From positions 558,001 through 622,000 of the forward strand of contig NZ_MHZG01000001.1 of assembly GCF_001830325.1 (NCBI RefSeq): a stretch of DNA of 64,000 nucleotides. Direction: 5' to 3'. How positions within the stretch are numbered: the stretch's first letter is position 1; every line of letters begins with the position of its first letter. The notes under the pieces are model-generated. The model saw nothing but the letters and a program-made list of their open reading frames with translations, did no database searches and was not told the DNA's origin. The DNA comes from Polynucleobacter sp. GWA2_45_21 (GTDB lineage: Bacteria; Pseudomonadota; Gammaproteobacteria; Burkholderiales; Burkholderiaceae). The position numbers were made by a program, and so were the translations under genes. Below, in pieces: positions 962-61,633 of the stretch.

Positions 962-967
962 TGTAAT
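962..967 (+). promoter_or_regulatory. Possible -10 box (TGTAAT), six bases before the 5'-nucleotidase start
   Basis: TGTAAT, then CCGTAA, then ATG at 974. It straddles the short gap after ilvA. The spacing fits transcription starting on the A of ATG, as seen at several other genes here, but read-through from ilvA is equally possible. I see no convincing -35. Confidence 0.3.
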
Positions 968-973
968 CCGTAA

Positions 974-1882
974 ATGTCATACACACTCACCGGGAAACTC
1001 GTCGTTGCGATTTCATCGCGCGCTTTATTTGATTTTGAAGAAGAAAATCGTATCTTCGAATCAACCGATGACAGCGCCTACATGAAACTCCAATTAGAGC
1101 GCCTATCTAAAGCTGCACAAACTGGAGTTGCATTTCCGTTGGTAAAGAAGTTGCTCGCTTTTAATGAAGAGGGTGAGCAACGTGTTGAGGTAGTAATTCT
1201 TTCTCGCAATGATCCAGTGAGCGGCTTACGCGTATTCCGTTCAGCCGAACATCATGGCCTTCATTTAGAGCGTGGCGTATTTACTAGAGGGCGCCCACCC
1301 TATCACTACCTTCGATCACTTCATGCCAACCTATTTCTCTCGGCTAACGAAGATGATGTGCGTGCCACAATCGATGCAGGTTTTCCTGCGGCACGTGTTT
1401 ATCCAGAATCGAGCAAGACTGCAGAGTCTCACCCAAATGAAATCCGTATCGCCTTTGACGGAGATGCTGTTTTATTTTCCGATGAGGCGGAGCAAGTATT
1501 CCAGAGCGAAGGCTTGGTTGCCTTTGTCGATCATGAGAGTAAGAAGGCTGCGATCCCATTACCACCGGGCCCATTTAAACCCTTGCTAGAAGCGCTGCAT
1601 CGCTTACAACGTAGTACCAGTGAAAAAGGGATGCGTATTCGTACTGCTTTAGTCACCGCTCGCTCTGCACCCGCACATGAACGTGCCATTCGCACACTCA
1701 TGGCTTGGGGTATCGATGTTGATGAAGCCATGTTCCTCGGCGGACTTTCCAAGAGCGAATTCCTGCGCGAGTTTGAGCCAGACTTCTTCTTTGATGATCA
1801 AACAGGTCACTGCCAATCTGCCGCATCAGTAGCGCCTACTGGTCACGTTGTATCTGGCGTTTCCAATAAACCTAAAAGCTAA
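974..1882 (+). CDS. 5'-nucleotidase (cytosolic 5'-nucleotidase I-like family)
   Basis: A 302-residue soluble protein of the bacterial 5'-nucleotidase family related to eukaryotic cN-I, expected to dephosphorylate nucleoside monophosphates. Visible features are the N-terminal VVAISSRALFD segment, VVILSRNDPVSGLRVF, the central IAFDGDAVLFSDEAE segment carrying the HAD-type DxD (substrate aspartates), and FLREFEPDFFFDDQ near the C-terminus. Its stop codon overlaps the start of queF by one base (TAATG), so the two are probably translated together. The family call is confident; the preferred nucleotide cannot be read from sequence. Confidence 0.82.
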   Translation: MSYTLTGKLVVAISSRALFDFEEENRIFESTDDSAYMKLQLERLSKAAQTGVAFPLVKKLLAFNEEGEQRVEVVILSRNDPVSGLRVFRSAEHHGLHLERGVFTRGRPPYHYLRSLHANLFLSANEDDVRATIDAGFPAARVYPESSKTAESHPNEIRIAFDGDAVLFSDEAEQVFQSEGLVAFVDHESKKAAIPLPPGPFKPLLEALHRLQRSTSEKGMRIRTALVTARSAPAHERAIRTLMAWGIDVDEAMFLGGLSKSEFLREFEPDFFFDDQTGHCQSAASVAPTGHVVSGVSNKPKS

Positions 1883-2709
1883 TGTCCACAATCCCGCTTG
1901 GCCAGGCAACACAATATCCCGATCAATACGATCCGAGCCTGCTCTTTCCTATTCCGCGTTCTGAGAATCGCCTCAAGCTAGACATCAAACCCAATCAAGC
2001 TTTACCGTTTGTAGGTGTTGATATTTGGAATGCCTTTGAGCTTGGCTGGCTCAATAAAAAAGGGAAGCCCCAGATCGCTTTGGCAGAGTTTCAGATTCCA
2101 GCAGACTCGCCAAACATGATTGAATCCAAGTCATTCAAGCTGTATCTGAACAGTCTCAATAGCGCCCGCTTTGAAGATGAAGCTGAAGTACGCGAAAGAT
2201 TGATCACAGATTTATCGGCAGTAGCTGGGAGCAAGATTGCCACTCGTATCAATCCAACCGAGATGGTTGCCAAAAATGGAATGCAGGAGATGAGCGGCGT
2301 TCTCATGGATCGTCTTGATATCGAAATCGATCCAAACCTATCCGCTGATCCTGCTTTGCTTGAGGTGAATGAATCGTTTGGACCCATCGAGCAATGCTTG
2401 GTTTCTCATTTACTCAAATCCAATTGCCCGGTGACCGGTCAACCAGATTGGGCTAGCGTGCAAATTCGCTATCAAGGCCGTCCCATTTTGGAAGAAGGCT
2501 TGCTGCGCTACTTAATCGGATTTAGACAAAAAGGTGAGTTTCATGAGCATTGCGTTGAAACCATCTTTACGGATATCAAGCGCCAATGCAAACCAGAGAA
2601 GCTCTCTGTCTACGCTCGTTACACCCGACGCGGTGGTCTAGATATCAACCCCTTCCGCACCGATCACAATGCGCCCTGGCCTGACAATACGCGCCACGCT
2701 AGGCAATAA
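1882..2709 (+). CDS. queF: NADPH-dependent 7-cyano-7-deazaguanine reductase
   Basis: Reduces preQ0 to preQ1 in the queuosine tRNA-modification pathway. At 275 residues it is the long, two-domain (YqfQ-type) form. The ESKSFKLYLNSLN QueF motif lies near residues 81-93, and the thioimide-forming cysteine is in NCPVTGQPDW, about residue 182. The start overlaps the upstream nucleotidase stop by one base. The stop abuts the stop of the convergent downstream gene with no bases between them. Confidence 0.96.
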   Translation: MSTIPLGQATQYPDQYDPSLLFPIPRSENRLKLDIKPNQALPFVGVDIWNAFELGWLNKKGKPQIALAEFQIPADSPNMIESKSFKLYLNSLNSARFEDEAEVRERLITDLSAVAGSKIATRINPTEMVAKNGMQEMSGVLMDRLDIEIDPNLSADPALLEVNESFGPIEQCLVSHLLKSNCPVTGQPDWASVQIRYQGRPILEEGLLRYLIGFRQKGEFHEHCVETIFTDIKRQCKPEKLSVYARYTRRGGLDINPFRTDHNAPWPDNTRHARQ

Positions 2710-3945
2710 CTAAGGCTCGGTCACCTGTTTTACTGGTGCTACGCTGGGCCCATAAATCAGCTCAAGATTTTTTTGAATACTAGGCGCTTGCGAGAAACAG
2801 CTTTTAACTAGCGCTGGATTTGCATACCAATCGGCATCATCTCTCGCTTCGTCAATAAATGATTTCATGACAATGGCACTATCGACATCATCAAGCCCAG
2901 CAGCCTTGAGTTTTGTAAATCCCGATGAACAAGCTTTTGCCAAATCAAGGCCTTCTGCTTTAGAAATACGCTGAAGTAGGCTAGGTGCTGAGCTATTTAA
3001 GATCTGCATAAAATTGAGTCCTGAGCCAGGCATTTGGAAATTCAAAATGTATTCAGATGAAAGATTTTCTCGACTTGCCAGTCCCTCAATTTGGGACACT
3101 GTTGGATAAAACACGCTACGGAAAAATTGAAACTCCAGTTTTACAGTAAACAGAAGTTGTTTTTCAGATTTAGGATCTTTTTGTAATTGCAGAATTTGCT
3201 TGTCACTCAGGCTGCCAACACTTTGATCCGCTTTATAAACTAGGATTTCAACCGCTCGAATCCCTTTGCGCAATTCTGACCAATTAAAAGTAACGGGCAC
3301 CTTAGCGTCAATCATTCCCTGTAAAAGACTATTGGCTTTCTTTTGGGTCTCACCTACCACTGAGTTTCCAACTGTTGCTGAAATTCCGCCGATCGCAGCT
3401 GCTGAACCACCAGTTGCAACAATTGCAGCAGCCCCCAGTAGCAATTTGGCAGAACCAATGAAATCCTGATTAGAGTCACTTGAACTTCTGACATTGAGTA
3501 CTAAGGAGAGTGCTCCTGGATTGAATATGGAATAAGTTCCCAGCACCGTCATGGGCACTATTAATAATGGAGTCGTACTCAATGAGGCGCACTCAGAACC
3601 GCCCTCTCTTCCATCAAAGGTAGCAATTGGAATTTCTAACTTATCGAGCTTACCCTTGAAGCCCTGAGTCACAACCGATAATACGAGTTGCGTTTTATCA
3701 GATCCCCAAAAACTACGACTAGCCATTTGCGTACAACTACTCACAGGAATTACTTCAGAACTAATCGTGAGGTATCCGTCATTACCTCGCCCTTCATTTA
3801 ACCAATCCGGAGGATCCCCTTTAACAAAAGAGGGGTTCATGTCTGGAAAGAAAAAGGGGGCTGCTAAGGACGACTGCGGCAAAGCACCAATACAAATGGC
3901 TATAGATGCCAAAAGTGGAGATTTGCTTATCCCTAGGAGATTCAT
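2710..3945 (-). CDS. Unrecognised secreted protein
   Basis: I do not recognise this 411-residue protein. It begins with a signal peptide (hydrophobic stretch ending PQSSLAAP, probable cleavage after Ala). A Gly/Ala-rich hydrophobic stretch around residues 170-200 (GGSAAAIGGISATVG) could be membrane-associated. The rest looks like a mixed alpha/beta periplasmic protein with few cysteines. A GTG six bases upstream (3951) is in frame, but ATG at 3945 is preferred because a TAAAAT hexamer ends exactly six bases before it. It is convergent with queF and transcribed alone. Confidence 0.7.
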   Translation of the reverse strand: MNLLGISKSPLLASIAICIGALPQSSLAAPFFFPDMNPSFVKGDPPDWLNEGRGNDGYLTISSEVIPVSSCTQMASRSFWGSDKTQLVLSVVTQGFKGKLDKLEIPIATFDGREGGSECASLSTTPLLIVPMTVLGTYSIFNPGALSLVLNVRSSSDSNQDFIGSAKLLLGAAAIVATGGSAAAIGGISATVGNSVVGETQKKANSLLQGMIDAKVPVTFNWSELRKGIRAVEILVYKADQSVGSLSDKQILQLQKDPKSEKQLLFTVKLEFQFFRSVFYPTVSQIEGLASRENLSSEYILNFQMPGSGLNFMQILNSSAPSLLQRISKAEGLDLAKACSSGFTKLKAAGLDDVDSAIVMKSFIDEARDDADWYANPALVKSCFSQAPSIQKNLELIYGPSVAPVKQVTEP

Positions 3946-3951
3946 GAGCAC

Positions 3952-3957
3952 ATTTTA
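3952..3957 (-). promoter_or_regulatory. -10 box (TAAAAT) with N6 to ATG
   Basis: On the minus strand TAAAAT is followed by GTGCTC and ATG. A start of transcription at the usual distance would coincide with the A of ATG, giving a leaderless mRNA. No purine-rich ribosome-binding site precedes the start. Confidence 0.5.
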
Positions 3958-3995
3958 AGGTGAATACAGCAAATTAAGCATCGCATACGCCTACA

Positions 3996-4034
3996 TCAAA
4001 AAGAAACCCCAGGAAGCTCATGCTTGCTGGGGTT
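3996..4034 (-). terminator. Rho-independent terminator of ssb
   Basis: AACCCCAG...CTGGGGTT stem (4005-4012 with 4027-4034), extended inward by AAGC/GCTT across one mismatch with loop TCAT. On the minus strand it is followed by TTTCTTTTTG. It lies 37 bases past the ssb stop. Confidence 0.85.
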
Positions 4035-4070
4035 GATTGCTACGCAGTCAAATAACTGCTTACGCACCAA

Positions 4071-4526
4071 TTAAAACGGGATATCGTCATCCATTGCACC
4101 AAGGGATGCAGCATTTGAAGATGCTGGTGCAGACTGCTCAGCCGGCTTTGAGCGGCTATAACTTTCACCACCATCACCACCGCCGCCTACTGGCTTACCA
4201 CCAAGCATTTGCATTGTTTCTGCAACGATCTCAGTGGAATATTTTTCCTGGCCACTAGCGTCAGTCCATTTACGTGTTCGCAAACGACCTTCTACATAAA
4301 CCTGTGAACCTTTTTTGAGGTATTGACCAGCGATCTCTGCAAGTTTTCCAAAGAATGCAACGCGGTGCCATTCTGTGGTCTCTTTCATTTCGCCAGACTG
4401 CTTATCTTTGTAACGATCTGATGTCGCTACTGAAATGTTGGTTACTGCGTCGCCGCTTGGCATATAACGTGTTTCTGGGTCGCGCCCTACGTTACCTACG
4501 ATGATGACCTTATTTACCGAAGCCAT
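4071..4526 (-). CDS. ssb: Single-stranded DNA-binding protein
   Basis: Binds ssDNA as a tetramer in replication, recombination and repair. The 151-residue protein starts [18 protein letters not shown], has the OB-fold landmark [11 protein letters not shown], a Gly/Ser-rich linker, and the canonical acidic tip MDDDIPF that recruits partner proteins. It has a normal leader with a GGGAGA ribosome-binding site and its own terminator. It lies downstream of an MFS gene and near uvrA, a common betaproteobacterial arrangement. Confidence 0.97.
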
Positions 4527-8745: not shown

Positions 8746-10725
8746 TCAGAGCAATTTAGATTCGGCTAAATCAGTCGCCTCTGAATTGCCTGAGAGCACC
8801 AAGATATCATTGGCCTGCAAGCGCAAGTCTGGAGTGAGCTCCAATTTGACATAGTCTGACCCGCCGACTTTTCGTCTGACTGCTTGCACGCTCACACCTT
8901 CATTTTCAAGATGCAATTCTTCAAGAGTCTGCCCAATACTGGCTGATTCAGGCAACAAAGTAACTGAATGCAAGCGCCATGATTCCTTGGAATCGACTTC
9001 ATCAGCGACACCGCGGAAGTAACCGCGTAATAGACTGTAGCGAGCTTCACGTGCATTCGTAATACGGCGCACTACCTTACGCATCGGCACACCCATCATC
9101 AATAAGACGTGTGAGGCCATCATGAGACTACCCTCAATCAATTCCGGCACCACCTCAGTAGCGCCAGCTGCTTGCAGCTTTGCTAAATCCGCATCGTCTT
9201 TTGTACGCACCAATACAGTCATGCCCGGACGTAAGTGCTCAACTTGATGTAATACCTTTAATGTTGCCGGCGTATCTGCATAGGTAATCACTACCGCCTT
9301 TGCTCTGGACAAACCAGCAGCTACCAAATAATTTTCTCTACTAGCGTCACCGTAGACCACGTTATCACCGGCCGCAGCGGCCTCCTTTACTCGGTCCGGA
9401 TCCATATCCAATGCAAGGTAAGGAATTTTTTCCTGATCGAGCATGCGGGCCAAGCTTTGTCCTGAACGACCAAAACCACAAATAACAACATGGTTTTCTG
9501 TACGAACACTTTTTGCTGCGACCCGTGTAAGTGCCAATGATTGCAACAGCCATTCATTACTCGAGAAGCGCATCGCAATTCGATCGCTGTATTGAATTAA
9601 GAAAGGCGCTCCAAACATCGAGAGCAACATCGCCGCCAATACTGCTTGACTTAACTCCGGGTCAATTAAATTCAGGCCATCGATCTGATTTAGCAATACA
9701 AATCCAAACTCGCCTGCTTGCGCAAGACATAAACCGGTTCGAATAGAAACACCAGGACTTGAGCCGAAAGCGCGTGACAGCAATGCAATCAAACCGAACT
9801 TGAAAATCAGAGGACCGATCAATAAGAGTAAGACCAGCATCCACTGCTGATAGATCACCTCGAAATCGAGCAGCATGCCAACGGTAATAAAGAACAGACC
9901 CAAGAGCACATCTCTAAAGGGCTTTACGTCCTCCTCCACCTGATGGCGATAGGGTGTCTCAGCAATCAGCATCCCGGCCAAGAAAGCTCCGAGCGCAAGT
10001 GATAAACCAAAATGCTCAGTGAGGGCTGACATACCCAAAACAATGAGTAGCAAGTTGAGCATGAATAGCTCTTGAGAGCGCAGCTTTGCAACCACACTAA
10101 ACCACCGACTCATTAAAGTCTGGCCAATAAAGAAAATGAGAATCAGCGCTACCGTAATCTTGATCGATGCCGTAGTAAGGGCAAGAAATAAATCGCTTGG
10201 GTTACTTCCCAGGGAAGGTATCAAAATCAATAAAAAAACTACTGCTAAGTCCTGGAATAACAAAATACCAATGACGTTTCTGCCATGTTCGGTTTCTAGC
10301 TCTGAACGGTCTGAAATGAGTTTAGTAACAATGGCAGTGGAAGACATGGCTAATGCACCTCCCAGGGCGATAGCTGCCTGCCATGAAATGGGGTATGCCC
10401 AATTGAGCAAAAGACTGGCTGGCACAGCCAAAAGCATCGTCAAAACGACTTGGCTGCCACCCAGGCCAAATACGATAGTTCGCATAGCCCTCAGCTTATG
10501 GAGATTGAATTCCAGGCCAATTGAGAACATCAAGAAAACCACCCCAAATTCAGCCAAATACTTGACTGTGGCGGAATCACTGGCCAAACCAAAGGCATGC
10601 GGCCCAATCAGGACGCCAATGGCAAGATAGCCCAAAATAGGGGGTAGCCCAAAATAGCGGAAAATAACTACCCCGGCCACTCCGGAGGCCAGCAAGATGA
10701 GAGTTAACTGAAGGACTGACGGCAT
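8746..10725 (-). CDS. CPA2-family K+/H+ antiporter with TrkA domains (KefB/YbaL-like)
   Basis: A 659-residue monovalent cation:proton antiporter. An N-terminal Na+/H+-exchanger domain of about 12-13 helices (to about residue 385) is followed by a RCK/TrkA-N nucleotide-binding domain starting VVICGFGRSGQSLARML (about 420) and a TrkA-C domain at the end. This is the layout of KefB/KefC/YbaL exporters used in electrophile and pH stress. No separate Kef activator gene is next to it. It is divergent from kdsD with only 11 bp between starts; GGGGTGAG lies three bases before its ATG and may act as a ribosome-binding site. Confidence 0.88.
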   Translation of the reverse strand: MPSVLQLTLILLASGVAGVVIFRYFGLPPILGYLAIGVLIGPHAFGLASDSATVKYLAEFGVVFLMFSIGLEFNLHKLRAMRTIVFGLGGSQVVLTMLLAVPASLLLNWAYPISWQAAIALGGALAMSSTAIVTKLISDRSELETEHGRNVIGILLFQDLAVVFLLILIPSLGSNPSDLFLALTTASIKITVALILIFFIGQTLMSRWFSVVAKLRSQELFMLNLLLIVLGMSALTEHFGLSLALGAFLAGMLIAETPYRHQVEEDVKPFRDVLLGLFFITVGMLLDFEVIYQQWMLVLLLLIGPLIFKFGLIALLSRAFGSSPGVSIRTGLCLAQAGEFGFVLLNQIDGLNLIDPELSQAVLAAMLLSMFGAPFLIQYSDRIAMRFSSNEWLLQSLALTRVAAKSVRTENHVVICGFGRSGQSLARMLDQEKIPYLALDMDPDRVKEAAAAGDNVVYGDASRENYLVAAGLSRAKAVVITYADTPATLKVLHQVEHLRPGMTVLVRTKDDADLAKLQAAGATEVVPELIEGSLMMASHVLLMMGVPMRKVVRRITNAREARYSLLRGYFRGVADEVDSKESWRLHSVTLLPESASIGQTLEELHLENEGVSVQAVRRKVGGSDYVKLELTPDLRLQANDILVLSGNSEATDLAESKLL

Positions 10726-10730
10726 ATACT
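10725..10730 (+). promoter_or_regulatory. -10 box (TATACT) with N6 to the kdsD start
   Basis: TATACT-CACCCC-ATG. A weak TTAACT -35 lies 15 bases upstream. The box overlaps the start codon of the divergent antiporter gene. There is no room for a leader or ribosome-binding site, so a leaderless kdsD message is likely. Confidence 0.6.
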
Positions 10731-10736: not shown

Positions 10737-11729
10737 ATGATAGCTAAGACTCGTGACCGAACCCTAAAGCTTGCGCGCGACACCCTCACAATTGAGGCTG
10801 CTGCACTGCACACAATGCGTGATCGCCTTGAGGGCGCCAACGCCGACGCCCTTGTTTTGGCGGTAGATCTTCTTCACTCCTGCAAAGGCCGTATCGTTGT
10901 TTCTGGGATTGGTAAATCGGGGCATATTGCACGTAAGATTGCTGCTACCTTTGCATCTACTGGCTCACCTGCGTTTTTTGTCCATCCAGCCGAAGCCAGT
11001 CATGGCGACCTGGGAATGGTCACGCGTGATGATGTCTTCGTCGCACTTTCTAATTCTGGCGAGACTGATGAGCTTCTCACCATCGTGCCAATTGTCAAAC
11101 GTACTGGTGCAAAACTCATTGCACTGACTGGCGCACCAAACTCTTCTTTAGCAAAATTGGCGGATGCCCATTTAGATACCAGCGTTGAGAAAGAGGCATG
11201 CCCTCTGAACTTGGCGCCAACCACCAGCACGACTGCTGCACTCGCCATGGGGGATGCTTTGGCTGTTGCCCTACTGGATGCGCGCGGCTTTGGGGCTGAA
11301 GATTTTCAGCGTTCCCACCCAGGCGGCCGCTTGGGTCGCAAGCAACTGATGCATGTCAGTGAAGTGATGCGCAACTTTGATGAGACTCCGAAGATTGCGA
11401 TCTCTGCGTCTCTGCAAGAAGCTTTACTCGAAATGACTTCTAAACGCATGGGTATGGTGGTGACTTTAGACAATGCAAATAAAGTCGCCGGTATCTTTAC
11501 TGACGGCGACTTACGTCGGCTACTGGAGAAGAGCACCAATCTGGATGGCCTCACTTTAGAAAAAGCAATAACTTCAGCGCCACGCACAATTCCTCCTGAG
11601 CTACTCGCAGAAGAAGCTATTGAGATGATGGAAAAACATCGCATTAATCATTTAGTGGTGACCGACCCCAAAGGCACATTACTAGGAGCGCTTAACCTCC
11701 ATGATCTATTTGCTGCCAAGGTTATTTAA
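10737..11729 (+). CDS. kdsD: Arabinose-5-phosphate isomerase
   Basis: Converts ribulose 5-phosphate to arabinose 5-phosphate, the first step toward Kdo of the LPS core. The 330-residue protein has an N-terminal SIS sugar-isomerase domain (VSGIGKSGHIARKIA, HPAEASHGDLGMV) and two C-terminal CBS domains (about 210-330). It heads the kdsD-kdsC-lptC-lptA-lptB series, in which the later genes overlap. Confidence 0.95.
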   Translation: MIAKTRDRTLKLARDTLTIEAAALHTMRDRLEGANADALVLAVDLLHSCKGRIVVSGIGKSGHIARKIAATFASTGSPAFFVHPAEASHGDLGMVTRDDVFVALSNSGETDELLTIVPIVKRTGAKLIALTGAPNSSLAKLADAHLDTSVEKEACPLNLAPTTSTTAALAMGDALAVALLDARGFGAEDFQRSHPGGRLGRKQLMHVSEVMRNFDETPKIAISASLQEALLEMTSKRMGMVVTLDNANKVAGIFTDGDLRRLLEKSTNLDGLTLEKAITSAPRTIPPELLAEEAIEMMEKHRINHLVVTDPKGTLLGALNLHDLFAAKVI

Positions 11730-12994: not shown

Positions 12995-13548
12995 GCTTAT
13001 TACGCCTATTCAGAATGTCATCCGCAGCATTGGCAGTCTGCTTCTTTACCGCCACCCATGCTGAAAAAGCAGATCAAGATAAACCAATTGTTTTGGAGGC
13101 TGAAAAAGTTTCCGTAAATGATGTGCAGCAGATATATGAGCTTAACGGTCAAGTACTCTTAACCAAAGGTAGCATTTTGATTACCGGCGAAAAAGGTAAT
13201 ATCAAGGTTGATCCAGAAGGCTATGAGTATGTTGATGTTCAAGGTAAGCCAGAATTGACTGCTAGTTTCAGACAAAGACGCGAAGGCCCCGCTAATGAGT
13301 TTATGCAGGGCCGCGGTCAGACAGTTACTTACAATGCAAAAACTGAGCTACTGACCTTGACGGGAGACGCCAGCTTAAAGCGTCTTTTGAATATGCAAAT
13401 GCTGGATCAATTACACGGCTGGAAAATTGATTATGACGATGTCCTGCAGCGCTATCAAGTCACGCCGCCGCCAAATGCTAAAGCAGAAGATCTGCCCTTG
13501 GCTAAAGCTATCCTTTCACCAAGAAGAAAAGCTACACTAGAGAAATGA
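12991..13548 (+). CDS. lptA: LPS transport periplasmic protein LptA
   Basis: Periplasmic bridge protein carrying LPS toward LptDE. The 185-residue protein has a signal peptide ([14 protein letters not shown]) and the OstA fold beginning [13 protein letters not shown], with [17 protein letters not shown] as the family landmark. It overlaps lptC and lptB by four bases each. Confidence 0.93.
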
Positions 13549-18302: not shown

Positions 18303-19123
18303 TGAGGACAAAAATAAGTGGAACGTTGACCTTGCACTATTTGTTTAATCGGCGTCTTGCATATCTTGCAGGGCTGATCTTTGCGATCATAGACTTTGGT
18401 TTGCACCATGAAGTGGCCTGGGTCACCCTCACTGTTTACAAAATCTTTCAAAGAACTGCCGCCTGCAGCAATCGCTTTTTTCAAAATCAATCTCACTGCA
18501 TTAGCCAGCCTCGAACATTGTGGACGGGTTAGCTTTCCAGCAGCCTTTGCTGGATGGATGCCAGCCTCAAATAAACTTTCTGAGCAATAGATATTGCCGA
18601 CACCTACTACCGCCTGTCCTGCTAATAAAAACTGCTTCACGGCAACACTACGCTTACGTGAACATTGGTATAGGACATCTGCGCCAAGCTCACCTTCAAA
18701 CTCCGGTGAAAACGGCTCAACCCCGAGTTTTTGCAAGAGTGGGTTGCTCTCAATCGGCCCTTTGGATTTCGGGTGCCACAAAACGGCGCCAAACTTTCGG
18801 GGGTCATGCAGACGCAAACTCAGCTTGTCAAACTCGAATGTCACTCGATCATGTGGCTTGAGGATGTCACTGCTAGGCAGTACGCGCAATGTGCCTGTCA
18901 TTCCTAGATGCAGCAATAAATACCCGGCATCAAACTCCATTAAGAGGTATTTGCCTCTGCGTTCTATTCCCAAGACTTTCTGGCCAGAAAGTACTGTATT
19001 TAAATTGCTGGGTACAGGCCAACGCAGTCGACCATCAATAATTTTGACTGCGCTCACCCTACGCCCCTCTAAGTGGGGCGCAATACCCAAGCGGGTAACT
19101 TCAACTTCTGGGAGTTCAGGCAT
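18287..19123 (-). CDS. mutM: Formamidopyrimidine-DNA glycosylase
   Basis: Excises 8-oxoguanine and formamidopyrimidines, with AP-lyase activity. The 278-residue protein starts PELPEVEV (catalytic Pro after Met removal), has the HLGMTGTLR segment, and ends with the zinc finger CKICKTPI...YFCPQCQ. It sits in one unit with mutY, so the two enzymes guarding against 8-oxoG are co-expressed. Confidence 0.97.
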   Translation of the reverse strand: MPELPEVEVTRLGIAPHLEGRRVSAVKIIDGRLRWPVPSNLNTVLSGQKVLGIERRGKYLLMEFDAGYLLLHLGMTGTLRVLPSSDILKPHDRVTFEFDKLSLRLHDPRKFGAVLWHPKSKGPIESNPLLQKLGVEPFSPEFEGELGADVLYQCSRKRSVAVKQFLLAGQAVVGVGNIYCSESLFEAGIHPAKAAGKLTRPQCSRLANAVRLILKKAIAAGGSSLKDFVNSEGDPGHFMVQTKVYDRKDQPCKICKTPIKQIVQGQRSTYFCPQCQKR

Positions 19124-19129: not shown

Positions 19130-19135
19130 ATTGTA
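19130..19135 (-). promoter_or_regulatory. -10 box (TACAAT) with N6 to the mutM start
   Basis: Minus strand: TACAAT-CCATTT-ATG. No ribosome-binding site. The 35 bp between mutM and the divergent TPR-LolB gene holds -10 boxes for both genes. Confidence 0.55.
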
Positions 19136-19146: not shown

Positions 19147-19152
19147 TAGAAT
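19147..19152 (+). promoter_or_regulatory. -10 box (TAGAAT) with N6 to the TPR-LolB start
   Basis: TAGAAT-GTGCTC-ATG. The N6 plus ATG is identical to that of the unrecognised gene at 3945. No ribosome-binding site is present. Confidence 0.55.
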
Positions 19153-19158: not shown

Positions 19159-20646
19159 ATGACCAAATTTTCATTAAAGCCTTCTTTAAGGGTCTTATTG
19201 CTCGCAGGCGGACTTGGCTTGAGCCTTTCTTCCAGCTATGCCAGCGCCCAAAACAGTAGCCTAGAAAGCGGTCAAGCGGTGTTTGAGGTCTTAGCCTCCG
19301 AAATTGCCCTGCAACGCGGTGAAGCTGGTCTGGCATACACGACCTATTTGGAGCTTGCTCGCCAACTCGATGACCCCCGTTTAGCCCAAAGGGCCATGGA
19401 GATTGCCATTACTGCAGGGGCACCTGATTTAGCACTTCAAGCAGCCCAAACCTGGGATAGTTTGGCTGGACCAAAGCAAACAAAACCCAAAGAAGTGCTC
19501 ATCACACTCTTAATCTTGAATCAACGCTGGTCAGATGCAGTTCAACCTGCCATCTCTCTTCTAAATCAGCAAACTCCTGCGCAGCGCGAAAAAACTTTGC
19601 TACAGATTCAGTCCTTACTCGGTAAGGCAAGTAATGAATCAGAAGCCTTAAGGGCTTTTTACGAAATCGTCTCAACATTAAAGCCAGAGCCACAAGATCC
19701 TGGGCTGCTCTATACCTACGCCATGTCTGCCGAAAAATCCGGACACCTCGATGTGATGGAAAAAACTCTGCGCGAAATCTTGCGCAAGAATCCAAATGAC
19801 GTTAATAGCCTGAATGCACTTGGATACTCCCTGGCCGATCGGAACCAAAAATTACCCGAGGCGTTCAAGCTCATTAGCAAAGCAAATCAACTCTCACCTA
19901 GAGATGGTTTTATTTTGGACAGTCTTGGTTGGGTGAACTTTCGCATGGGCAAAAATGCTCTTGCGCTCGAACAACTGCAACAAGCATTCAATATGAAGCC
20001 CGAGGCAGATATTGCTGCGCATATTGGTGAAGTCTTATGGGTTATGAATCGCCCAATCGAAGCCGAAGATATGTGGCGAAAAGGCCAGCAATTAGATGCC
20101 AACAACCCCACCCTCAAGGAAACTTTGAAACGCTTAAAGCCTGATTGGTCTGTGGCGGATACCGCCCTCAAAGGCTCATGGGACGGGCGCTTCGCGGTGA
20201 AGGTCACTGGGCTTACCGAAGGTACAAATCAAGGTGGATCAGGTGGATTCACCTTGACTCAAGATGCACTCACTGACGTTTTAGAAATTCGTAATCCAGT
20301 CGGCGGTTCAATTGCCAAAATTACGATTAAGCCTGGAGAGGCGATTCTGGAACGCGATGGTCAACTCACCACAGCCATTGATGCCGACACTCTTATTCAA
20401 AATACATTAGGACTTCCACTACCAGCCCGTGGTTTATCTGACTGGTTACGGGGACAAACCCGACCTGGTAGCAATGCGAGTGTAGAGCGAAATGAAAAAG
20501 GTCAAGTCAGCAAAATTACACAAGACGGCTGGACCTTAAATTACAACTGGAATGATGCTCAGCGCTTAGAAAAACTGACGATGACTCGCAGCTCTAATAT
20601 CGGATCGATTGATATCCGCTTGGTATTTGATACTCCGAACGAGTAA
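19159..20646 (+). CDS. TPR protein fused to a LolB-like domain
   Basis: A 495-residue exported protein with two parts. A signal peptide (VLLLAGGLGLSLSSSYASAQ) is followed by TPR-type helical repeats (about 25-335), including LNALGYSLADRN and LDSLGWVNFRMGKNALALEQL. The last 150 residues match the LolB lipoprotein-receptor pattern: WDGRFAVKV, GGFTLTQ, DVLEIRNPVGGSIAKI, DADTLIQNTLGLPLPARGLSDWLRG and QDGWTLNYNW. LolB normally sits just before ispE, as here. The protein contains no cysteine, so it cannot be lipidated like classical LolB. ATG 19159 was preferred over an in-frame GTG at 19153. The LolB assignment is by motif only. Confidence 0.82.
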   Translation: MTKFSLKPSLRVLLLAGGLGLSLSSSYASAQNSSLESGQAVFEVLASEIALQRGEAGLAYTTYLELARQLDDPRLAQRAMEIAITAGAPDLALQAAQTWDSLAGPKQTKPKEVLITLLILNQRWSDAVQPAISLLNQQTPAQREKTLLQIQSLLGKASNESEALRAFYEIVSTLKPEPQDPGLLYTYAMSAEKSGHLDVMEKTLREILRKNPNDVNSLNALGYSLADRNQKLPEAFKLISKANQLSPRDGFILDSLGWVNFRMGKNALALEQLQQAFNMKPEADIAAHIGEVLWVMNRPIEAEDMWRKGQQLDANNPTLKETLKRLKPDWSVADTALKGSWDGRFAVKVTGLTEGTNQGGSGGFTLTQDALTDVLEIRNPVGGSIAKITIKPGEAILERDGQLTTAIDADTLIQNTLGLPLPARGLSDWLRGQTRPGSNASVERNEKGQVSKITQDGWTLNYNWNDAQRLEKLTMTRSSNIGSIDIRLVFDTPNE

Positions 20647-29272: not shown

Positions 29273-29299
29273 TTAGCACTCTCTTGACAAGAGTGCTAA
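29273..29299. promoter_or_regulatory. CIRCE operator (HrcA binding site) upstream of rpoH
   Basis: TTAGCACTC (29273-29281), nine bases, GAGTGCTAA (29291-29299): an exact match to the CIRCE consensus TTAGCACTC-N9-GAGTGCTAA. It lies 39 bases before the rpoH ATG. Confidence 0.95.
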
Positions 29300-29314: not shown

Positions 29315-29338
29315 ATACCTAAAATATATAAAAAGAAA

Positions 29339-40262: not shown

Positions 40263-40270
40263 AGTATACT
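40263..40270. promoter_or_regulatory. Shared palindromic -10 (AGTATACT) between methyltransferase gene and comF
   Basis: Minus strand: TATACT (40263-40268)-GAGCCA-ATG. Plus strand: TATACT (40265-40270), then nine bases to the comF ATG at 40280. One palindrome can serve both divergent genes. Confidence 0.5.
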
Positions 40271-43374: not shown

Positions 43375-43788
43375 TTATTTGATTAATGGGAGGGCTGCAG
43401 CTTGCCAACCCTGAACGCCGCCGTCCAAAACCGCAACTTCAGAAAATCCCAGTTTCTTGAGCTCTGGAAGCGCTTTGCGGGCACTCACACCGGATTGGCA
43501 TACCAGAATGACCGGATTCTTACGATCCAGTTTGAGCTTGTCGAGTCCAGTAGAGATTCGGTCGGCCAAGATATGCTTAGACCCAGGCAGATGACCCGCT
43601 TTAAAGTCCGATTCTGGACGCAAGTCCAAAACAGCCGCTTTTCGGCGATTAATCCAAATAGTTGCCTCCGAAGGCGATAAGCCTTTTCCGCTAATAAGCG
43701 TAGATAATGTGGGGAGGAAGAGCGCTGCGCCCGAAACAAACAAGAGGGCGATAAGCGCTAGATTATCAATTTGCGTGAGAAAGTTCAT
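43375..43788 (-). CDS. Membrane-anchored rhodanese-like protein
   Basis: A 137-residue protein with an N-terminal helix (about 8-30) and a rhodanese domain whose active-site loop is CQSGVSARK. It resembles E. coli YibN, next to grxC and secB. Sulfur donor unknown. ATG 43788 was preferred over GTG 43791 because TATAAT ends six bases before it. Confidence 0.9.
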   Translation of the reverse strand: MNFLTQIDNLALIALLFVSGAALFLPTLSTLISGKGLSPSEATIWINRRKAAVLDLRPESDFKAGHLPGSKHILADRISTGLDKLKLDRKNPVILVCQSGVSARKALPELKKLGFSEVAVLDGGVQGWQAAALPLIK

Positions 43789-43794: not shown

Positions 43795-43804
43795 ATTATA
43801 GAAT
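43795..43804. promoter_or_regulatory. Overlapping divergent -10 boxes between rhodanese gene and gpmA
   Basis: Minus strand: TATAAT (43795-43800)-CCGGTG-ATG (rhodanese). Plus strand: TAGAAT (43799-43804)-GGCTCT-ATG (gpmA). Both give N6 spacing to the start codon, and the two boxes share two bases within a 22 bp gap. Confidence 0.6.
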
Positions 43805-43810: not shown

Positions 43811-44500
43811 ATGAAACAACTTGTCCTTATTCGTCATGGCGAATCCGCCTGGAACCTTGAAAACCGCTTCACTGGCTGGGCGGACGTTGACTTAACCCCA
43901 AAAGGCACGGAACAGGCCCTAGCTGCAGGAGAAAATCTCCGCCAAGCAGGCTACGAGTTTGATTTAGCTTACACCTCGGTACTGAGAAGAGCGATTCGTA
44001 CCCTGTGGCATGTTCAGGACACCATGGACCTCATGTGGTTACCCGTAGTCCATAGCTGGAGACTAAACGAACGTCACTATGGCGCCCTCACTGGTCTTAA
44101 TAAAGCTGAAACTGCCCAGCAGTACGGAGATGCCCAAGTTCATATTTGGCGACGCTCCTACGATGTGCGCCCACCACTCCTAGAAAAGGGTGACGAACGT
44201 AATCCGCAGAATGATCGACGTTACGAAAAACTCAATGCTTCTGACATTCCTTTGGGCGAGTGCCTTAAAGATAACGTCGAGCGTGTATTGCCCCTTTGGA
44301 ATGAATCTATCGCTCCCGCCCTCAAAGCAGGTAAGCGCGTATTAATCGTTGCACATGGCAATAGCATCCGCTCTTTGATTAAGTATCTCGATCAGGTTTC
44401 TGACGAAGACATCATGGAAATCAATGTTCCCAATGGTATCCCGCTTGTTTATGAGCTCGATGACAATCTCAAACCCATTCAGCATTTTTATTTGGATTAA
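43811..44500 (+). CDS. gpmA: 2,3-bisphosphoglycerate-dependent phosphoglycerate mutase
   Basis: Interconverts 3- and 2-phosphoglycerate. The 229-residue protein has the phosphohistidine motif [41 protein letters not shown] and [14 protein letters not shown]. ctpA follows after 14 bp. Confidence 0.97.
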
Positions 44501-50163: not shown

Positions 50164-51462
50164 TTAAGCAGCTTCAGCATTAGGATCAGAGCGCTCTAAC
50201 TCTAAAGAGGCGGATAACAAAGCTAAGCGAGCGACAACACCATAAAGATAAAAACGATTTGGCGGCGCACTACCAGGCTTGGCACCTAGGTCTGGCATAG
50301 AGTTTTGCTCGAACGCCAAAGGTACAAAATGCATGCCAGGTGCGTTTAGATTCTCGTCTGGACCACGATCAGTATGCACACGATAGAAGCCGCCAATCAC
50401 ATAGCGGTCAATCATGTACACCACTGGCTCTGCAACTGCTTCATTGACCTTTTCGAAGGTATATACACCCTCCTGAATTAAGACATCGCTGACTTCAAGG
50501 CCTTCTTTAACAACACTCATCTTATTGCGGTCTTTGCGATTCAGACCCTTGAGTTGCGCAGGATCGTTTACTACCATGACACCCATACCGTATGTACCAG
50601 CATCAGCCTTCACTACGACGTAAGGCTTTTCTTTAATGCCGTACTCTCGATATTTCTTCGCAGTTTTCTTGAGCACCTTCTCAACAGCAGCCTGCAACTC
50701 TTCTTCGCCCTTACGCTCATGGAAGTTCACATTAGAGCAACTAGCAAAGTAAGGATTAATCATCCAAGGATCAATATCAACTACCTTTGCAAATTTCTTA
50801 GCGACTTCATCGTAAGCTGTAAAGTGATTTGACTTACGGCGGACATGCCAACCGGCATGCAGGCCTGGCAAGAGATATTGCTCGTGGAGGTTTTCTAGGA
50901 TCGGAGGAATACCCGCTGATAAATCGTTGTTCAGCAAAATTGAACAGGGATCAAAGTCTTTTAAACCTAAACGCTGCTTCTTCAAACCTAGGCGAGACAA
51001 AGGCTCCATCAAGAGACGATTACCATCAGGCAAATCAATCCAAGTTGGTTTTTTAATCTCATCAGACAAAGTACCTAAGCGAACATTCAGACCGGCTTGG
51101 CGCAAGATCGAAGACAGACGTGCAATATTCTGCAAATAGAAAGTATTGCGAGTGTGCCGCTCAGGTATTAGTAGTAAATTTTTTGCTTCCGGGCAAATTT
51201 TCTCAATGGCTGCCATAGCTGCCTGAACTGCCAAGGGCAACATCTGGGGCGAGAGGTTATTAAACCCACCCGGGAAAAGATTCGTATCAACTGGCGCAAG
51301 CTTAAAACCTGCATTACGCAAATCAACTGAGCAGTAGAACGGCGGAGTGTGCTCCTGCCATTCAAGCCTGAACCAGCGCTCAATCGTTGGGGTTGCTTCC
51401 AATACCTTCGACTCGAGATCGAGAAGAGGGCCGCTAAGGGCAGTGATGAGATGTGGGACCAT
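50164..51462 (-). CDS. gshA: Glutamate-cysteine ligase (proteobacterial GshA type)
   Basis: First enzyme of glutathione synthesis. The 432-residue protein belongs to the branch typical of Burkholderiales and Acidithiobacillus, not the E. coli type. Recognisable parts are VDLRNAGFKLAPVDTNLFPGGFNNL near the N-terminus, VVKADAGTYGMGVMVV and YMIDRYVIGGFYRVH. A TACAAT box ends six bases before the ATG. Confidence 0.93.
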   Translation of the reverse strand: MVPHLITALSGPLLDLESKVLEATPTIERWFRLEWQEHTPPFYCSVDLRNAGFKLAPVDTNLFPGGFNNLSPQMLPLAVQAAMAAIEKICPEAKNLLLIPERHTRNTFYLQNIARLSSILRQAGLNVRLGTLSDEIKKPTWIDLPDGNRLLMEPLSRLGLKKQRLGLKDFDPCSILLNNDLSAGIPPILENLHEQYLLPGLHAGWHVRRKSNHFTAYDEVAKKFAKVVDIDPWMINPYFASCSNVNFHERKGEEELQAAVEKVLKKTAKKYREYGIKEKPYVVVKADAGTYGMGVMVVNDPAQLKGLNRKDRNKMSVVKEGLEVSDVLIQEGVYTFEKVNEAVAEPVVYMIDRYVIGGFYRVHTDRGPDENLNAPGMHFVPLAFEQNSMPDLGAKPGSAPPNRFYLYGVVARLALLSASLELERSDPNAEAA

Positions 51463-51468: not shown

Positions 51469-51474
51469 ATTGTA
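51469..51474 (-). promoter_or_regulatory. -10 box (TACAAT) with N6 to the gshA start
   Basis: Minus strand: TACAAT-AGTGTC-ATG, just after the amtB terminator hairpin. No ribosome-binding site; a leaderless gshA message is likely. Confidence 0.6.
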
Positions 51475-58000: not shown

Positions 58001-58023
58001 GAGAAACGCTTTCTGAAATCTTT

Positions 58024-58332: not shown

Positions 58333-58344
58333 ACATACTCTCAA

Positions 58345-59439
58345 TCAAGTTTTTGAATTAAAGGTGGTCCGATTTCGGAGTGCCCAAAATAAAGCCAATG
58401 GCAACCATACTACTGAAACCCATTGCATTAATTCGTTAAAGTGTAATAGCCGACCCTGGTACCACTGCCGTAATGTCAAAATGAAATAAGGATTGTCTGG
58501 CAAAAGATTAATTGCCAGGGTGGCACTCAGCAAGCAAGTGATCGCAAGCCAAGCTTTATTGCTTACAGATAACCTGAGAGCCCATCTCAGCAATAGACTT
58601 CCCAGCAGCATCCCCCAGATAGCTCCAGCCGTGAGCCACACCAAGCTAAATACCGCCCCGAATTGCAATGTCGTAAAGGCAATTTTTACTAGAACGGTGA
58701 AGCAGAGTAGGCCATTCAAGATTTTCCACTGGGGGGCTTTTGCGCGCATCCCTAGCGATAGTAAAAGCCCGGTACCTAGCCAGCAGACCGCTGTAATGAT
58801 GGACTCCTGTACAACATGGTTTATCACCATGGTTCCCCAGTCAACCGAGGCAAAAATCGCATGCCCCCACACCCCTGTACCCAACCAAGAACTCTGAGGG
58901 TAGATCTGGGTCCAAGGAAAAAGTAGAAACAGGGCGCAAGCAGCCCAGTTCAAACCAAACCATTGGTCAAAACGACGGCGCACCACGCTACCAGAAAGCC
59001 ACTGGGGGCCCAAGGGTATAGCTAGCAAGCCACCTAACAGAGCGCCCAACACATTAGCCCACCAATCCATTTGACTCGGTATCCGAGTAGGGAGCCAAGT
59101 TTGCAAGGATTCCACACTCAACGCTAATACCGCACTCAAACCCAAAGCAATGCCTAAGGCAACAAAATTACGCCAACGTGGGTAACAGGCAAAAACCAAG
59201 ATAAACCCTAGAGGGATATAGGCCAATATATTGACCGAGACATCAAAGAGCGTGATAAAGCGAGGCAAAGGGGCATCCAACCACGCTAATGCTGCAATAC
59301 CATTGTCCAGGTGGAAATCAAAAGGGTTGAGGCTGACGTAAAGGATTAAAAGTGCGTAGCTCAAGCTAATAGCCCTAGCTAAAGGCATCGCCTGGAGAGG
59401 CCAAACAAACTTGCGAGGACGCTGATCTTCGTGATGCAT
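58345..59439 (-). CDS. VanZ-like membrane protein
   Basis: A 364-residue polytopic protein with about ten helices. The VanZ-like pattern is in the N-terminal half (SLNPFDFHLDNG, DVSVNILAYIPLGFILVFA, VESLQTWLPTRIPSQMDWWANVLGALLG). Such domains occur in envelope proteins of Gram-negatives without glycopeptide resistance; the function is unknown. A TAGAAT box ends six bases before the ATG. Confidence 0.85.
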   Translation of the reverse strand: MHHEDQRPRKFVWPLQAMPLARAISLSYALLILYVSLNPFDFHLDNGIAALAWLDAPLPRFITLFDVSVNILAYIPLGFILVFACYPRWRNFVALGIALGLSAVLALSVESLQTWLPTRIPSQMDWWANVLGALLGGLLAIPLGPQWLSGSVVRRRFDQWFGLNWAACALFLLFPWTQIYPQSSWLGTGVWGHAIFASVDWGTMVINHVVQESIITAVCWLGTGLLLSLGMRAKAPQWKILNGLLCFTVLVKIAFTTLQFGAVFSLVWLTAGAIWGMLLGSLLLRWALRLSVSNKAWLAITCLLSATLAINLLPDNPYFILTLRQWYQGRLLHFNELMQWVSVVWLPLALFWALRNRTTFNSKT

Positions 59440-59445
59440 TCCCTT

Positions 59446-59451
59446 ATTCTA
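59446..59451 (-). promoter_or_regulatory. -10 box (TAGAAT) with N6 to the VanZ-like gene
   Basis: Minus strand: TAGAAT-AAGGGA-ATG. AAGGGA could also act as a ribosome-binding sequence only if transcription began further upstream. It lies in the 46 bp gap to birA. Confidence 0.5.
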
Positions 59452-59473
59452 GGTCAGCTGGGCCATATCTTTC

Positions 59474-59479
59474 TACAAT
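59474..59479 (+). promoter_or_regulatory. -10 box (TACAAT) with N6 to the birA start
   Basis: TACAAT-AGGAAA-ATG. It pairs with the divergent TAGAAT box of the VanZ-like gene in the same short gap. Confidence 0.5.
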
Positions 59480-59485
59480 AGGAAA

Positions 59486-60286
59486 ATGAGTCCGAATTGC
59501 ATCCTAGAACGTGTTGCCACCACCAAATCGACCAATGATGATTTATTGGCCCGTTGGCGTGCCGGGGAATTAATCGATCCTGTTGCTCGAATTGCCCACG
59601 AGCAGACCTCTGGCAAAGGCAGAGCTGGGAGGGCTTGGCTTTCCAACCCAGAAGACACGCTATGTTTTTCCTTGGCCTACCCATTCAATAAACGCCCTAA
59701 TGAGCTTAGCGGACTCAGCTTAGTAGTTGGACTGGCAGTCGTTTCCGGCATTGCCGAGGCCTTGGGAACCAGTGAAGTCGCACTCCATCAACAAGGCATT
59801 CGACTGAAATGGCCCAATGATTTGCTACTAAATCATTCCAAACTTGGTGGCATTCTGATTGAAGGTGGACAAAGCAATCCAAGCTCACCTACTTGGATGG
59901 TGATTGGGCTGGGCCTCAATCTTCGCAATGCATTACTGATTGAAAGGAATCTGGATGCCCAATCCTCAATCGGCGCTGCTGCTTTAGATCAACTCGTGCC
60001 TGACAAAACATTACTTCCTGATACTGAATTTATTTGGCTAAAACTCATTGAATCATTTGAAAAGTATTTAGCCCAATTTAAGCAACATGGATTTGCTTAC
60101 TTTAAAAACTCCTGGACGCAGTGGGATGCATATAACAATCAATCTGTTTGCATATCAGGTGCGGGCAAAGAGCCTATCATCGGAATTTCTACTGGGGTTG
60201 ATGACACTGGTGCACTTATCCTAAAGCAGCAGGACCAATCCATTGTCATTCATGCAGGCGATGTTTCTTTGCGAGTTCAATCATGA
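59486..60286 (+). CDS. birA: Biotin-[acetyl-CoA-carboxylase] ligase
   Basis: Attaches biotin to the carboxylase carrier protein. The 266-residue protein has the ligase core (TSGKGRAGRAWLS biotinyl-AMP loop, KWPNDLLL, GGILIEG) and a C-terminal SH3-like domain. No N-terminal DNA-binding domain is present, so it should not act as a repressor. It overlaps coaX by four bases. Confidence 0.95.
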   Translation: MSPNCILERVATTKSTNDDLLARWRAGELIDPVARIAHEQTSGKGRAGRAWLSNPEDTLCFSLAYPFNKRPNELSGLSLVVGLAVVSGIAEALGTSEVALHQQGIRLKWPNDLLLNHSKLGGILIEGGQSNPSSPTWMVIGLGLNLRNALLIERNLDAQSSIGAAALDQLVPDKTLLPDTEFIWLKLIESFEKYLAQFKQHGFAYFKNSWTQWDAYNNQSVCISGAGKEPIIGISTGVDDTGALILKQQDQSIVIHAGDVSLRVQS

Positions 60287-61104: not shown

Positions 61105-61129
61105 ACCAGCCCACTTTAATTTGCAGGGC

Positions 61130-61621
61130 TTAGCTAGTACGAATCTTTCCCAGTAGCGTTGTAGTAGAACGCTCATATAAAAATGGAACGGCGACTGCTT
61201 TGCCACCCCAGGTTTTTACTAGACGAGTTTCTTCAAGGGTATCGATCTCATAATCTCCACCCTTGACATAGATATCCGGATGAATTTTTGCAATCAAATT
61301 CACTGGCGTCTGTTCTGTAAATAACATGACCAAATCAACACTCTCCAGCGCCGCTAATAAAGCTTGTCGGTCTGCCTCGGTATTGATAGGTCTGTCATCA
61401 CCCTTACCCAACATCTTGACTGAGGCATCCGAGTTCACACCAACGACCAGACTCGCTCCTAATGCTCGGGCTTGAGCTAAGTAACTAGCATGGCCGCGGT
61501 GCAAGATATCAAAGACGCCGTTCGTAAATACCAGAGGTCTTGGAAGCGCGGCAATACGAGCCTCCAGCTCAGCCGGCGGACAGACTTTGGACTCAAAAGA
61601 AGGTAAAGGTAGAGAGCTCAT
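61130..61621 (-). CDS. hldE2: D-glycero-beta-D-manno-heptose 1-phosphate adenylyltransferase
   Basis: Makes ADP-heptose for the LPS inner core. The 163-residue protein is the stand-alone C-terminal half of HldE, with FDILHRGHASYLAQAR (HxGH motif), GVNSDASVK and YERSTTTLLGKI. The kinase half is encoded elsewhere, as usual in betaproteobacteria. A TAATAT box ends six bases before the ATG. Confidence 0.94.
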   Translation of the reverse strand: MSSLPLPSFESKVCPPAELEARIAALPRPLVFTNGVFDILHRGHASYLAQARALGASLVVGVNSDASVKMLGKGDDRPINTEADRQALLAALESVDLVMLFTEQTPVNLIAKIHPDIYVKGGDYEIDTLEETRLVKTWGGKAVAVPFLYERSTTTLLGKIRTS

Positions 61622-61627
61622 AACGTC

Positions 61628-61633
61628 ATATTA
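61628..61633 (-). promoter_or_regulatory. -10 box (TAATAT) with N6 to the heptose adenylyltransferase start
   Basis: Minus strand: TAATAT-GACGTT-ATG. No ribosome-binding site is visible, so the message may be leaderless. Confidence 0.5.

What the first reader, a model, noticed from the sequence alone, without database searches (positions are those of the whole stretch)
962..61633. Leaderless start architecture: -10 box, exactly six bases, then ATG, at about a dozen genes
At kdsD (TATACT), the unknown gene at 3945 (TAAAAT), mutM (TACAAT), TPR-LolB (TAGAAT), the methyltransferase gene (TATACT), rhodanese (TATAAT), gpmA (TAGAAT), gshA (TACAAT), the VanZ-like gene (TAGAAT), birA (TACAAT) and hldE2 (TAATAT), a -10-like hexamer ends exactly six bases before ATG. 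The 5'-nucleotidase (TGTAAT) and possibly rpoH (TATAAA) fit too. Since -10 boxes span about -12 to -7, +1 would be the A of ATG, so these mRNAs would have no leader. Most lack a ribosome-binding site, whereas ssb, rplY, hpf, glnK, amtB, ptsH and coaD have clear ones. Leaderless mRNAs are usually regarded as rare in proteobacteria.
Basis: partly seen in the sequence, partly recalled or inferred. Interest (0 to 1): 0.75.

Follow-up and report, generated by a model that had tools for sequence, protein, structure and literature searches.

The report
Leaderless genes in a freshwater Polynucleobacter
In this freshwater bacterium a small set of genes has its promoter placed so that the messenger RNA should begin at the first letter of the start codon, an arrangement shared by its close relatives, while some bacteria outside its genus keep the same promoter box further upstream.

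Summary
The window lies in a 2.11-Mb Polynucleobacter-like genome. All eleven core genes have TANNNT ending six bases before ATG. Relatives keep that offset: gpmA 59/59, rhodanese 58/58, gshA 71/72, vanZ 42/44, birA 44/44; without the own copy mutM 28/28, lolB 24/26, kdsD 28/29, methyltransferase 29/29, hldE2 27/29, unknown gene 2/4. Twelve of 17 usable control genes score 0; the highest is lipB, 15/45. Outside the window the effect is smaller: 22/343 genes against 8.9 (sd 3.2) at other offsets; the window is a hotspot (13/63). GTG/TTG starts show no excess. In gpmA, gshA and mutM of other Burkholderiales the same or a one-base variant box often lies 34-85 bases before ATG, so leaders were probably lost towards Polynucleobacter. 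Three divergent pairs have two back-to-back boxes within 22-46 bases between ATGs. No -35 enrichment. Best reading: leaderless mRNAs, a known kind already reported in beta-proteobacteria. No transcription start was measured.

The parts
10725..10730 (+). -10-like box TATACT of kdsD (SIS/CBS protein), ATG at 10737
   Evidence: (28 of 29 relatives at -12; the other has it at -13)
3952..3957 (-). -10-like box TAAAAT of an unknown 411-aa gene, ATG at 3945
   Evidence: 2 of 4 relatives; no Pfam match
19130..19135 (-). -10-like box TACAAT of mutM, ATG at 19123
   Evidence: (28/28 relatives)
19147..19152 (+). -10-like box TAGAAT of the TPR-LolB gene, ATG at 19159; 11 bases from the mutM box
   Evidence: (24/26 relatives)
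40263..40268 (-). -10-like box TATACT of the methyltransferase gene, ATG at 40256; lies in the palindrome AGTATACT
   Evidence: (29/29 relatives)
40265..40270 (+). the same palindrome read the other way, TATACT nine bases before the ATG (40280) of a divergent phosphoribosyltransferase/zinc-ribbon gene
   Evidence: sequence
43795..43800 (-). -10-like box TATAAT of the rhodanese gene, ATG at 43788; overlaps the gpmA box by two bases
   Evidence: (58/58)
43799..43804 (+). -10-like box TAGAAT of gpmA, ATG at 43811
   Evidence: (59/59)
51469..51474 (-). -10-like box TACAAT of gshA, ATG at 51462
   Evidence: (71/72)
59446..59451 (-). -10-like box TAGAAT of the VanZ-like gene, ATG at 59439
   Evidence: (42/44)
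59474..59479 (+). -10-like box TACAAT of birA, ATG at 59486
   Evidence: (44/44)
61628..61633 (-). -10-like box TAATAT of the hldE2-type cytidylyltransferase gene, ATG at 61621
   Evidence: (27/29 relatives)
962..967 (+). TGTAAT before the 5'-nucleotidase gene (ATG 974): present, kept at -12 in 1 of 10 relatives, not counted as leaderless
29327..29332 (+). TATAAA before rpoH (ATG 29339): present, kept at -12 in 1 of 10 relatives, not counted as leaderless

Best explanation
The hexamers are the -10 elements of sigma-70-type promoters. Their last base lies six bases before ATG, so RNA polymerase, which starts about seven bases after the -10 box, begins on the A of ATG. The mRNA then starts with AUG and has no leader (or one of 1-2 bases in the spacing variants), so no Shine-Dalgarno helix is possible. 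The ribosome would recognise the 5'-terminal AUG with initiator tRNA, as described for other leaderless mRNAs. The arrangement is derived: several relatives outside the genus keep the same or a one-base variant box 34-85 bases before ATG with a normal leader, so bases between box and ATG were lost on the line to Polynucleobacter, most often where two genes face away from each other across a short gap. Shown: position, enrichment, conservation, ATG-only use, similar boxes outside the genus. Inferred: that the boxes are used, the start point, leaderless translation and the direction of change.
For: Single sharp offset peak at -12: TANNNT 35/406, TANAAT 14 against 0-3 at any other offset; outside the window 22/343 against 8.9 sd 3.2 and 6 against 0.5; second species G031 11/177 against 4.8 sd 2.1. 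No excess at GTG/TTG starts (6 at -12) and 14/2357 at internal ATGs. More frequent in genes that can be first in a transcript: 28/211 (divergent, or same-strand gap >=50) against 6/175 (same-strand gap <50), p = 0.0005, with 20 edge genes (1 boxed) left out. Offset kept in relatives for ten core genes at 92% or more, and 2 of 4 for the unknown gene. In vanZ the box is 1.000 conserved against 0.735 at -45..-13 and 0.745 at -6..-1. Kept when the vanZ and birA boxes are 13, 22 or 23 bases apart. gpmA 10/10 and rhodanese 9/9 in deeper members. Outside the genus: gpmA TAGAAT 11/27 at -34..-85 (0.72 expected), Cupriavidus gshA TACAAT 6/6 at -41..-49, mutM TACAAT 5/15 and TAAAAT 10/15 at -43..-57. 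A Shine-Dalgarno 4-mer in 1/35 against 111/340.
Against: No transcription start was measured. No -35 (TTGACA) enrichment: 7 of 35 with >=4 matches against 4.5 expected. Three to over four tenths of the genes scored at -12 in the sample are expected by chance (10.4 or 15.4 of 35; 8.9 of 22). In G031 the strict TANAAT is 1 against 0.3, no real excess. The Shine-Dalgarno contrast is partly forced, since the box occupies the same bases. For gpmA and rhodanese the flanks are conserved too (0.898 and 0.984), as they lie partly in the opposite gene. In deeper genomes mutM lacks the box in 3/10, and the methyltransferase box is 7-8 bases from ATG in 7/10 and absent in 3. In 16 of 27 outgroup gpmA loci TAGAAT was not found, and one outgroup (L124) has TATAAT at -12 of a GTG start.
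Confidence: 0.85

Rival explanations
1. The genes are mainly transcribed from promoters further upstream and have ordinary leaders; the box at -12 is a secondary promoter or a remnant.
For: No start mapping; no -35 partner; same-strand genes such as gshA have about 119 bases upstream.
Against: Box and exact spacing are under strong constraint in many species. In the close divergent pairs an upstream promoter would lie inside the other gene.
Confidence: 0.09
2. The ATG is not the true start; a leadered start lies elsewhere.
For: Some ORFs have later ATGs. lolB and the unknown gene have an in-frame GTG at -6, rhodanese one at -3.
Against: ATG stands at the homologous position in 59/59 gpmA, 44/44 birA, 28/28 mutM and 29/29 methyltransferase relatives. 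MutM needs its Pro at position 2 as nucleophile (recalled), and GpmA's RHG motif begins at residue 8. TAG/TAA boxes (gpmA, lolB, vanZ, hldE2, unknown gene) are themselves in-frame stops, so an earlier start is barred but for the GTG at -6 in two of them.
Confidence: 0.02
3. AT-rich start regions and chance give the pattern; it has no function.
For: The background is not small: about 10 genes per offset in 406.
Against: Peak at one offset only, conservation in relatives, 12 of 17 usable control genes at 0.
Confidence: 0.01
4. The conserved hexamer is a repressor or other protein site that happens to abut ATG.
For: Conserved bases flank some boxes, e.g. GGTCNGACC between vanZ and birA and the palindrome AGTATACT.
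Against: Unrelated genes share TANNNT with A at the fourth and fifth base (25/35 and 22/35), the -10 consensus, at one fixed distance.
Confidence: 0.03

Closest known systems
TA-led (leaderless) genes of bacteria, Zheng et al. 2011, PMC3160421 (passages and section 7 seen)
   Same: TANNNT about 12 bases upstream of the start codon, read as the -10 box of a leaderless gene; beta-proteobacteria listed, 9 of 71 genomes, mean 6.8% (2.8-10.6)
   Different: Polynucleobacter is not named in what I read; no ortholog-by-ortholog conservation or leadered-homolog comparison of this kind was seen there
Leaderless transcripts of Burkholderia cenocepacia J2315 by dRNA-seq, PMC4603805 (passages seen)
   Same: beta-proteobacterium; 72 primary starts exactly at the start codon and 42 within 10 bases (24 of these are tRNAs); TA-rich motif directly upstream
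   Different: measured there, not here; transcriptional regulators over-represented there, while here the named genes are mostly metabolic or envelope genes (Pfam)
-10-adjacent ORFs of Deinococcus-Thermus, PMC12340547 (passages seen)
   Same: -10 motif TANNNT next to the ORF, with specific spacing; adding a -35 raises expression there, so it is not required
   Different: about 30% of ORFs there, net about 4-6% of sampled genes here
Bidirectional promoters of E. coli (PMC12825309, passages seen; Warman et al. 2021 not held)
   Same: opposed -10 elements sharing or adjoining the same bases
   Different: here both genes also appear leaderless, so the box pair is nearly the whole intergenic region

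Membership tests
Leaderless (TA-led) bacterial genes | TANNNT with its first T about 12 bases before the start codon | tested here: met
Leaderless (TA-led) bacterial genes | enriched above shuffled or other-offset expectation in the genome | tested here: met
   35 against 15.4 sd 3.7, max 27, in 1000 shuffles; 22/343 against 8.9 sd 3.2 without the window; the sample is about 21% of the genome
Leaderless (TA-led) bacterial genes | no Shine-Dalgarno sequence | tested here: met
   1/35 against 111/340 with ATG, partly forced by the box
Leaderless (TA-led) bacterial genes | ATG rather than GTG/TTG start | tested here: met
   6 GTG/TTG at -12, no excess over other offsets
Leaderless (TA-led) bacterial genes | mapped transcription start at, or within a few bases of, the start codon | not testable with these tools
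   needs 5'-end RNA data
Sigma-70 promoter with a -35 | TTGACA-like hexamer 16-18 bases upstream of the -10 | tested here: not met
   7 of 35 with >=4 matches, 4.5 expected
Bidirectional promoter | opposed -10 elements sharing or adjoining bases | tested here: met
   gpmA/rhodanese boxes overlap by 2 bases in 59 of 74 loci scanned, not all of which cover the place; mutM/lolB 11 bases apart in 29 of 30 loci, own included; vanZ/birA 13, 22 or 23 apart in 43 of 73 loci scanned
Bidirectional promoter | divergent transcription starts measured | not testable with these tools
   no RNA data

The most novel reading that the evidence does not exclude
Double-leaderless bidirectional promoters: in Polynucleobacter two divergent protein genes can start 22-46 bases apart with little between the ATGs but two overlapping or back-to-back -10 boxes, each placing +1 on the A of its own ATG, any -35 contact lying at or in the other gene's first codons. 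At mutM/lolB this would have formed by loss of both leaders from an ancestral leadered bidirectional promoter, as the surviving box pair in genus g2 suggests.
Probability: 0.6. Interest if true: 0.6.

Novelty: new member of a known kind. Interest (0 to 1): 0.45.

Why it matters
It gives a case where the path from leadered to leaderless can be read from sequence: a like -10 box is seen 34-85 bases before ATG in relatives and at -12 in one genus of small genomes. It offers ten well conserved genes, three divergent pairs among them, for testing whether leaderless translation in a proteobacterium is a side effect of genome compaction or is selected.

Tried and rejected
Rejected as leaderless: the 5'-nucleotidase (TGTAAT at -12 in the own genome and 1 of 10 relatives) and rpoH (TATAAA at -12 in the own genome and 1 of 10 relatives; a CIRCE-like repeat and TAAAAT lie further upstream). 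Not counted either: the ABC-transporter gene at 13545 and lipB (15/45). Looked for a -35: none enriched. Looked for the extended -10 TGN: 4 of 35. Looked for 16S rRNA in the own assembly to read the anti-SD: not found by that search. Of eight other genomes of the order sampled at 200 kb each, six (G119, G053, G044, G007, G040, G015) show no -12 peak, G093 has 4/169 against 1.3, unclear, and G031, same genus, has it; high-GC genomes have low power. E. coli K-12 1-50000 was fetched but not used. Gene starts were not called by a trained gene finder: ORFs >=100 aa taken greedily by length, any in-frame ATG in the first 40 codons allowed, the same rule at every offset. In one search starts in deeper genomes were picked with preference for a box at -12, which favours the claim there; searches used the homologous position only. 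The script stopped with an error after the main table; the missing conservation rows were run. Outputs were cut. Control rows that say little: amtB (query given without its start, left out of the 17), gshB and yceD (ATG at the homologous place in only 6/72 and 18/45).

Literature: 'leaderless' with 'Polynucleobacter' in the held library gave 0 papers. Cited papers came; some searches were seen as listings and gave nothing further that is cited. PMC3160421: passages and section 7; PMC4603805, PMC12340547, PMC10783764, PMC12825309: passages only. Supplementary files were not open, so whether Polynucleobacter is among the nine beta-proteobacteria of Zheng et al. is not known.
Full report
What the window is. 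The window is contig 1, 558001-622000, of a 2.11-Mb assembly in 19 contigs. Its gshA protein is 100% identical to those of named Polynucleobacter genomes. I take the window to be from a Polynucleobacter species.

The observation. Reading 45 bases upstream of every large ORF and of every in-frame ATG in the first 40 codons confirms the hexamers at exactly -12 to -7. In the window 13 of 63 ORFs have TANNNT there: the eleven core genes of the finding plus an ABC-transporter gene at 13545 and lipB. The seven genes named as SD-led do have purine-rich words before ATG.

Chance. I sampled the window plus 20 stretches (389 kb, together about 21% of the genome), 406 ORFs. TANNNT at -12 of ATG occurs in 35, against a mean of 10.4 (sd 3.4, max 20) at 33 other offsets and 15.4 (sd 3.7, max 27) in 1000 shuffles of the upstream bases. 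GTG and TTG starts show 6, no excess; internal in-frame ATGs 14 of 2357. Because the window was picked for this feature, the fair test leaves it out: 22 of 343 against 8.9 (sd 3.2), and for TANAAT 6 against 0.5 (sd 0.8). The window is a hotspot (13/63 against 22/343, Fisher p = 0.0009). A second species, G031, gives 11 of 177 against 4.8 (sd 2.1) for TANNNT but only 1 against 0.3 for TANAAT. Net of background the share is about 4% of genes outside the window.

Context. Genes able to be first in a transcript carry it more often: divergent 18 of 110 and same-strand gap >=50 10 of 101, against 3 of 52 (gap 20-49) and 3 of 123 (gap <20); 20 genes at stretch edges (1 boxed) were left out (grouped 28/211 against 6/175, p = 0.0005). 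Among 76 divergent pairs of the two samples, 11 of 20 with ATG-to-ATG gap <=60 have at least one such gene, against 6 of 29 (61-150) and 2 of 27 (>150). Seven of those 20 close pairs are in the window (6 with a box); without them it is 5 of 13. All three pairs with both genes boxed lie in the window.

Conservation. In the Polynucleobacter-like loci around gshA the box stands at -12 in 59 of 59 gpmA, 58 of 58 rhodanese, 71 of 72 gshA, 42 of 44 vanZ and 44 of 44 birA orthologs. From up to 30 loci of the genus, the own copy left out: mutM 28/28, lolB 24/26, kdsD 28/29, methyltransferase 29/29, hldE2 27/29, unknown gene 2/4. Control genes: of 15 usable ones in the gshA stretch 11 score 0, the others being moeB 6/64, ptsA 1/70, gshB 4/72 and lipB 15/45; kefB 0/29, trmL again 0/28 and gene 61634 1/14. 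That is 12 of 17 distinct genes at 0. In vanZ the box is 1.000 conserved against 0.735 upstream and 0.745 between box and ATG; in gpmA and rhodanese the flanks are nearly as steady (0.898 and 0.984), as they lie partly in the opposite gene. The vanZ and birA boxes are 13 bases apart in 31 loci, 22 in 11 and 23 in one, yet both stay six bases from their ATGs. In ten deeper members of the genus gpmA keeps it in 10/10, rhodanese 9/9, gshA 7 of 8 with a readable start, mutM 7/10, kdsD 6/10 with the other four at -13; the methyltransferase box is 7-8 bases from ATG in 7/10 (starts there were picked with preference for a box).

Like boxes outside the genus. In 27 gpmA loci from other genera of the order, TAGAAT occurs in 11, 34-85 bases before ATG (0.72 expected from shuffles). 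In six of six Cupriavidus gshA loci TACAAT stands at -41 to -49, with AGGATGG just before ATG. In 15 of 15 mutM loci of genus g2 (same family) TACAAT (5) or TAAAAT (10) stands at -43 to -57, back to back with a TACAAT of the divergent lolB gene, whose ATG comes about 25 bases later. So the boxes look like promoters shared with leadered relatives, and the leader was probably lost towards Polynucleobacter. The direction is inferred from outgroups only. Of eight other genomes sampled, six show no peak, G093 is unclear and G031, the same genus, has it. One outgroup gpmA (L124) has TATAAT at -12 of a GTG.

Anatomy. In the 35 sampled genes A dominates at -9 (25) and -8 (22), the TATAAT trend. No TTGACA-like -35 is enriched (7 of 35 against 4.5), nor is the extended -10 TGN striking (4 of 35). 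A Shine-Dalgarno word is found in 1 of 35 against 111 of 340 other genes with ATG, a contrast that the box partly forces. Where the box is TAG or TAA (gpmA, lolB, vanZ, hldE2, unknown gene) it is also an in-frame stop, so the only earlier start possible is the GTG at -6 in lolB and the unknown gene.

Divergent pairs. gpmA and rhodanese ATGs are 22 bases apart and their boxes overlap by two bases (ATTATAGAAT), in 59 of 74 loci scanned, not all of which cover the place. mutM and lolB boxes are 11 bases apart in 29 of 30 loci, own included; vanZ and birA 13, 22 or 23 apart in 43 of 73 loci scanned. The methyltransferase box lies in the palindrome AGTATACT, read the other way nine bases before the ATG of a phosphoribosyltransferase/zinc-ribbon gene. 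Bidirectional promoters with shared -10 elements are known in E. coli (PMC12825309, passages). A search for leaderless with bidirectional promoter listed three papers, whose titles and abstract openings did not report such pairs.

What is not supported. TGTAAT before the 5'-nucleotidase and TATAAA before rpoH are each kept at -12 in 1 of 10 relatives. rpoH instead has a perfect inverted repeat, TTAGCACTC-N9-GAGTGCTAA, the CIRCE operator by recall, in the own genome and 8 of 10 relatives.

Known and new. TANNNT about 12 bases upstream of the start as the mark of leaderless genes was described by Zheng et al. 2011 (PMC3160421), with 9 of 71 beta-proteobacterial genomes positive; dRNA-seq of Burkholderia cenocepacia found 72 starts exactly at start codons and 42 within 10 bases, tRNAs included (PMC4603805). 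So this is a new member of a known kind. What seems new is the gene-by-gene conservation in Polynucleobacter, the leadered homologs and the paired leaderless divergent promoters; the library search for leaderless with Polynucleobacter returned nothing.

Noticed in passing
29273-29299: Perfect inverted repeat TTAGCACTC-N9-GAGTGCTAA (CIRCE-like, HrcA operator by recall) upstream of rpoH, perfect in 8 of 10 relatives; suggests HrcA control of the heat-shock sigma factor.
   Followed up: partly
2710-3945: 411-aa gene with no Pfam match, found in 7 of 41 genomes searched in the genus, own included, yet with the box at -12 in both relatives that align from residue 1.
   Followed up: partly
59446-59479 and orthologs: GGTCNGACC near-palindrome between the vanZ and birA boxes in many of the relatives shown; possible operator.
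   Followed up: no
L271, L355, L357, L359, L363: kdsD box at -13 instead of -12 in five genomes: a seven-base spacer seems tolerated.
   Followed up: partly
window as a whole: Share of boxed genes is three times that of the rest of the sampled genome (13/63 against 22/343).
   Followed up: partly
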